Positions 28,490-28,672 of a DNA stretch of 32,794 bases are shown in pieces. The stretch comes from Desulfobacteria bacterium (GTDB lineage: Bacteria > Desulfobacterota > Desulfobacteria > Desulfobacterales > C00003060): NCBI GenBank assembly GCA_030145395.1, contig JAQYVR010000049.1, forward strand, positions 1 to 32,794. The letters run 5' to 3'. The notes below the pieces were generated by a model that did not search any database, was not told the DNA's origin, and was given only the letters and a program-made list of their open reading frames with translations. The position numbers were made by a program, and so were the translations under genes. Position 1 is the stretch's first letter, and every line of letters begins with the position of its first letter.

Positions 28490-28672
28490 TCAAAACCTAT
28501 CAGACCGCACATTTGCTACTTCGTCTTCAAGGGCATCGTCCATTGAGTCCGCAAACTGCTCCAGATGGAATTTTGCGCCACACGACCTGCAGCACAAACT
28601 GACGGCACGTCATGACCTAAGAACTGATAACTTCTCACCACACTCCAAGCACCGAATTGAGAATGATTCCAT
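28490..28672 (-). CDS. Candidate dual-CxxC small selenoprotein with in-frame TGA at codon 21 (28612..28610)
   Basis: Read by hand: MESFSIRCLECGEKLSVLRS-[TGA]-RAVSLCCRSCGAKFHLEQFADSMDDALEDEVANVRSDRF stop. CLEC and CRSC motifs sit on opposite sides of the TGA; purine-rich ggagggg/aaggg lies upstream of ATG 28672. Confidence 0.65.
28572..28598 (-). promoter_or_regulatory. SECIS-like hairpin 3' of the in-frame TGA
   Basis: Minus-strand RNA UUUGUGCUGC-AGGUCGU-GUGGCGCAAA: 10 bp stem with wobbles; GGU in the apical loop; stem starts 11 nt after UGA. Confidence 0.55.

What the first reader, a model, noticed from the sequence alone, without database searches (positions are those of the whole stretch)
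28490..28672. Hidden dual-CxxC mini-protein with in-frame TGA and SECIS-like hairpin: candidate selenoprotein
Not in the ORF track because TGA splits it. On the minus strand, ATG 28672 to TGA 28490 is one open frame of 61 codons with a single internal TGA at codon 21. The product has one CxxC (CLEC) before and one CxxC (CRSC) after the TGA, so coding sense continues across it. The RNA after UGA can fold as UUUGUGCUGC[AGGUCGU]GUGGCGCAAA, starting 11 nt downstream, with GGU in the apical loop about 22 nt from UGA. This resembles the loop of the E. coli fdhF SECIS element as I remember it. I also recall a small dual-CxxC (seleno)protein family being annotated in Desulfobacterota but cannot verify that here. 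A nonsense mutation is the alternative.
Basis: partly seen in the sequence, partly recalled or inferred. Interest (0 to 1): 0.85.

Follow-up and report, generated by a model that had tools for sequence, protein, structure and literature searches.

The report
Tiny selenium-containing zinc-ribbon-like protein
The hidden frame is a real gene for a 60-residue protein whose internal stop codon is read as selenocysteine; it belongs to a small selenoprotein family first listed in 2007 whose function is still unknown.

Summary
On the minus strand, 28672-28490 encodes 60 residues with one in-frame TGA at codon 21. Read as Cys, it scores 73 bits (cut-off 40) against NCBIfam NF041197, "dual CXXC motif small (seleno)protein"; reviews list that family as OS_HP3, motif RxU. 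I extracted 143 family genes: the column is TGA in 112 and a Cys codon in the rest, apart from one damaged copy; no other residue occurs. A hairpin meeting published bacterial SECIS constraints follows the UGA in 107 of 112 TGA forms but only 9 of 31 Cys forms. Sequence after the TGA is under purifying selection (dN/dS 0.13-0.33 where computable). The genome carries SelA, SelD (itself with one in-frame TGA), tRNA-Sec(UCA) and SelB split over two contig ends. A nonsense mutation is rejected. Function is unknown: the fold is probably a zinc ribbon with Sec at the hairpin tip (low-confidence model), and the cysE-cysK-nifU-nifS neighbourhood was not found elsewhere. A related clade with a GxU motif often co-occurs. 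This is a new, unannotated member of a known kind.

The parts
28490..28672 (-). Selenoprotein gene (family NF041197 / OS_HP3): 60 residues MESFSIRCLECGEKLSVLRSURAVSLCCRSCGAKFHLEQFADSMDDALEDEVANVRSDRF, stop TGA at 28492-28490
   Evidence: homolog alignment A1
28610..28612 (-). In-frame Sec-UGA codon (residue 21, motif RSU = RxU)
   Evidence: column is TGA or Cys codon in the homologs; review motif RxU
28572..28598 (-). bSECIS-type hairpin, 11 bp, apical loop GGUCG at 28587-28583, 22 nt after the UGA
   Evidence: identical 27-mer in sister species G404 (L162); stem pairing 83% in U forms vs 53% in Cys forms
28640..28651 (-). First CxxC (CLEC), probable metal knuckle 1
28580..28591 (-). Second CxxC (CRSC), probable metal knuckle 2; its codons form the top of the SECIS hairpin
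28493..28504 (-). C-terminal tail SDRF, equivalent of the family's terminal [C/V][D/N]R[L/I/F]

Best explanation
It is a functional selenoprotein gene of a Desulfobacterales bacterium. SelB carrying Sec-tRNA(UCA) binds the GGU loop of the hairpin just downstream of the UGA and inserts selenocysteine at residue 21, giving a 60-residue protein. Two CxxC knuckles probably hold one zinc ion in a zinc-ribbon fold, with the selenol at the turn of the hairpin between them and an alpha helix plus conserved C-terminal tail following. Most likely it is a stand-alone redox-active or metal-handling protein in which the selenol is the working group. Shown by sequence: Sec/Cys exclusivity, SECIS, purifying selection after the TGA, and the Sec machinery. 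Inferred: the zinc ribbon (weak model), the redox role and partners. The confidence given is for the selenoprotein reading, not for the inferred fold and role, which I would put near 0.5.
For: NF041197 73.1 bits vs cut-off 40. Column TGA in 112 and Cys codon in the rest of 143 genes apart from the damaged L104. bSECIS constraints met by 107/112 TGA forms vs 9/31 Cys forms. Stem pairs 20-34 and 19-35 vary between CG, TA, GC and others while staying paired in 87% and 80% of U forms vs 31% and 15% of Cys forms; sliding the partner drops pairing to 24-51%. dN/dS after the UGA 0.13-0.33 in the eight genus comparisons where it could be computed. SelA 621.7 bits, SelD 364.7 bits with 1 TGA, tRNA-Sec anticodon UCA, SelB in two contig-end pieces. 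Of 34 phylum genomes without a SelA hit, only three have a family member: two fragmented drafts with TGA and one single-contig genome with Cys. AlphaFold: strand 14-20, turn at 21-22, strand 23-28, helix 37-52; best PDB matches are RNA-polymerase zinc ribbons.
Against: No experiment shows Sec incorporation. SelB is seen only as two fragments, at the ends of contigs C33 and C135. The window's own hairpin is not significant alone against synonymous recodings (10%). The structure model is weak (mean pLDDT 62, pTM 0.37) and no PDB match reaches E 0.001, so the zinc ribbon and the place of Sec are tentative.
Confidence: 0.95

Rival explanations
1. The TGA is a nonsense mutation or sequencing error in a Cys- or Arg-containing zinc-ribbon gene, or in a decaying pseudogene.
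For: The genome is a 288-contig draft; single-base errors occur. One homolog (L104) does look damaged.
Against: The same TGA is in 112 of 143 genes across many families of the phylum. The sequence after it is under purifying selection and the downstream SECIS is conserved, including an identical 27-mer in a sister species.
Confidence: 0.01
2. Two separate peptides of 20 and about 35-40 residues are made, terminating and re-starting around the UGA.
For: The only database protein found is a 35-residue piece, which I take to be an artefact of gene callers stopping at TGA.
Against: Cys forms are single uninterrupted proteins over the full length. TGA forms keep the same spacing between the two CxxC and a SECIS.
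Confidence: 0.02
3. UGA is read as another amino acid (for example Trp by a suppressor tRNA or a recoded genome).
For: None found in this window.
Against: The column is never Trp or Arg, only U or Cys; a dedicated tRNA-Sec(UCA) and the Sec machinery are present; the tRNA-Trp found has the ordinary CCA anticodon.
Confidence: 0.01
4. Functional rival: it works in sulfur, cysteine or Fe-S metabolism with the downstream cysE-cysK-nifU-nifS genes.
For: Those genes follow on the same strand, cysE 80 nt after the stop.
Against: None of these genes lies near any other family member examined, including the genus mates, although flanks there were often short. Neighbours elsewhere are unrelated housekeeping genes. 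glpQ is nearby in some genus mates, on varying sides.
Confidence: 0.1

Closest known systems
NF041197 CxxC_Se_CxxC, dual CXXC motif small (seleno)protein; hypothetical protein OS_HP3 (Zhang & Gladyshev 2007, cited in PMC9312934; table entry in PMC13188914)
   Same: Two CxxC flanking an RxU motif, same length and C-terminal tail; score well over the curated cut-off
   Different: Nothing of note: this is a typical member, missed by annotation because of the TGA; its tail has S instead of the usual C (SDRF)
Zinc-ribbon proteins (RPA12/RPC11/RPB9 type; YfgJ 2jne/2jrp; HVO_0758)
   Same: CxxC-hairpin-CxxC layout; best, though weak, structural and sequence resemblances
   Different: To my knowledge none of those matched carries Sec; no PDB match reaches E 0.001 by structure
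E. coli fdhF SECIS (from memory)
   Same: GGU in the apical loop of a hairpin just after the UGA
   Different: Stem sequence differs; not compared by tool here

Membership tests
NF041197 dual CXXC motif small (seleno)protein | Profile score above curated cut-off 40 | tested here: met
   73.1 bits read with Cys; 64.2 bits with the TGA in place
NF041197 dual CXXC motif small (seleno)protein | RxU/RxC between two CxxC | tested here: met
   RSU at 19-21, CLEC 8-11, CRSC 28-31
Bacterial selenoprotein | Sec/Cys exclusivity at the TGA column | tested here: met
   112 TGA, the rest Cys codons among 143 genes except one damaged copy
Bacterial selenoprotein | bSECIS: loop 3-9 nt, stem 4-16 bp, G in first two loop positions, 16-37 nt from UGA, MFE at or below -7.5 (constraints from PMC13188914) | tested here: met
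   loop GGUCG, 11 bp, 22 nt, hairpin -12.5 kcal/mol
Bacterial selenoprotein | SelA, SelB, SelC and SelD in the genome | tested here: met
   SelB split by contig ends
Bacterial selenoprotein | Selenium in the protein | not testable with these tools
   needs 75Se labelling or mass spectrometry
Zinc ribbon | Two knuckles binding one zinc, hairpin fold | tested here: inconclusive
   model pLDDT 62 shows the hairpin; PDB matches weak

The most novel reading that the evidence does not exclude
The family uses a zinc ribbon as a platform that presents a selenol at the tip of its hairpin, away from the metal, and docks through its C-terminal tail on a large conserved partner (for example RNA polymerase or the ribosome). 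Two paralogous branches (RxU and GxU) would then form a new class of selenium-based redox regulators in Desulfobacterota.
Probability: 0.08. Interest if true: 0.6.

Novelty: new member of a known kind. Interest (0 to 1): 0.27.

Why it matters
It confirms from raw sequence a gene that ordinary annotation loses, and adds comparative support for a poorly characterised family: strict Sec/Cys exclusivity in 143 genes, a SECIS built on the second CxxC codons that is weaker or absent in most Cys forms, and a second, GxU branch straddling the family cut-off. The open question, what these tiny selenoproteins do, stays open.

Tried and rejected
Operon-based function: the cysE-cysK-nifU-nifS neighbourhood was not found near any other family member, and no neighbour is shared widely. 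Rfam scan of the hairpin: nothing at gathering score, and no bacterial SECIS family came up. Plasmid search: no match. Protein database search: only a 35-residue fragment, as expected when gene callers stop at TGA. Genome-wide scan with the broad alignment failed for lack of a conserved stretch; repeated with genus-level sequences. The 2007 paper and Haft & Tolstoy 2025 are not held.

Full report
Observation. The RNA after the UGA folds into an 11-bp hairpin with loop GGUCG whose first base is 22 nt after the UGA. On its own the hairpin is only moderately unusual.

Identity. Read with Cys for the TGA, the protein matches NCBIfam NF041197 (dual CXXC motif small (seleno)protein) with 73.1 bits against a cut-off of 40. 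With the stop left in, the six-frame search of the window's genome gives E 3.6e-17 and one hit only. Reviews list this family as OS_HP3 with motif RxU, credited to Zhang and Gladyshev 2007 (PMC9312934; PMC13188914); here the motif is RSU. A 2025 method paper calls OS_HP3 of Desulfosarcina widdelii a known selenoprotein that it missed (PMC12013277). The nearest named relatives are Desulfobacterales MAGs.

Sec, not stop. The family was found in 113 of 398 genomes of the phylum and 57 of 80 closer relatives. From these I extracted 143 distinct genes: 112 have TGA at this column and the rest a Cys codon; no other residue occurs, except that one Cys assignment (L104) is an artefact of a damaged copy. 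Applying the published bSECIS limits (loop 3-9 nt, G in its first two positions, 16-37 nt from UGA, at least 4 bp) with a hairpin energy cut of my own of -3 kcal/mol, 107 of 112 TGA forms pass and 9 of 31 Cys forms do. At the window's register the inner stem pairs in 83% of cells in TGA forms, 53% in Cys forms, 24-51% with the partner slid by 1-3 bases, and at most 78% in 1000 shuffles; two pairs covary clearly. The sequences are related, so the shuffles are not a strict probability. Some clades use a hairpin shifted upstream (loop GGUG, 16 nt from UGA), so the register itself has moved in evolution. Sister species G404 keeps the identical 27-nt hairpin although its protein is only 65% identical. 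Against genus mates the codons after the UGA give dN/dS 0.13-0.33 in eight comparisons; two more were saturated.

Machinery. SelA (621.7 bits), SelD (364.7 bits, itself with one in-frame TGA) and tRNA-Sec with anticodon UCA are present; SelB is in two pieces at the ends of contigs C33 and C135, most likely one gene cut by the assembly. Of the 34 phylum genomes without a SelA hit only three have a family member: two fragmented drafts (79% and 67% complete) with TGA, and one single-contig genome with the Cys form (cross-tabulated by eye).

How it may work. Homologs of form A share only the four CxxC cysteines, the U/C column, a leucine, an arginine near the end and a conserved tail. The predicted structure, of low confidence (pLDDT 62, pTM 0.37), is strand-turn-strand between the knuckles and then a helix, with Sec in the turn; its best PDB matches are zinc ribbons of RNA polymerase subunits, none below E 0.001. 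I therefore propose, as inference, a zinc ribbon with a selenol at the hairpin tip. Gene neighbours do not help: the cysE-cysK-nifU-nifS genes behind the window's copy were not found near other members, and no neighbour is widely shared.

Verdict. Novelty is low: a typical, unannotated member of a known family of unknown function.

Noticed in passing
L103, L106-L112, L114-L118, L161, L163, L170, L173 (hits): A second branch, CxxCGGxAxIxGRUxxARVVCxxCGME, motif GxU and no CDRL tail, scores about 20-46 bits to NF041197 (cut-off 40). TGA in 14, Cys in 3; in several genomes it occurs together with a form-A gene elsewhere. It may deserve its own family (alignment A2).
   Followed up: partly
C-termini of form-A members, window 28493-28504: Most members end in [C/V][D/N]R[L/I/F/V] within a residue of the end; the Cys clades of families f26, f103, f71 and f82 end in IIYD instead. 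A conserved tail suggests a docking site.
   Followed up: no
L169 (G413), L147 and L168 (G400): Some genus mates carry two copies; in G413 they lie 3.8 kb apart on the same strand, and in G400 a glpQ-like piece lies upstream of both copies.
   Followed up: no
L128 (G000:C267:33261-34187): The genome's own SelD contains one in-frame TGA, so it is probably a selenoprotein too.
   Followed up: no
L104 (G373:C39:3912-4022): A family member matching only after the first CxxC; the start is out of frame or degraded.
   Followed up: no
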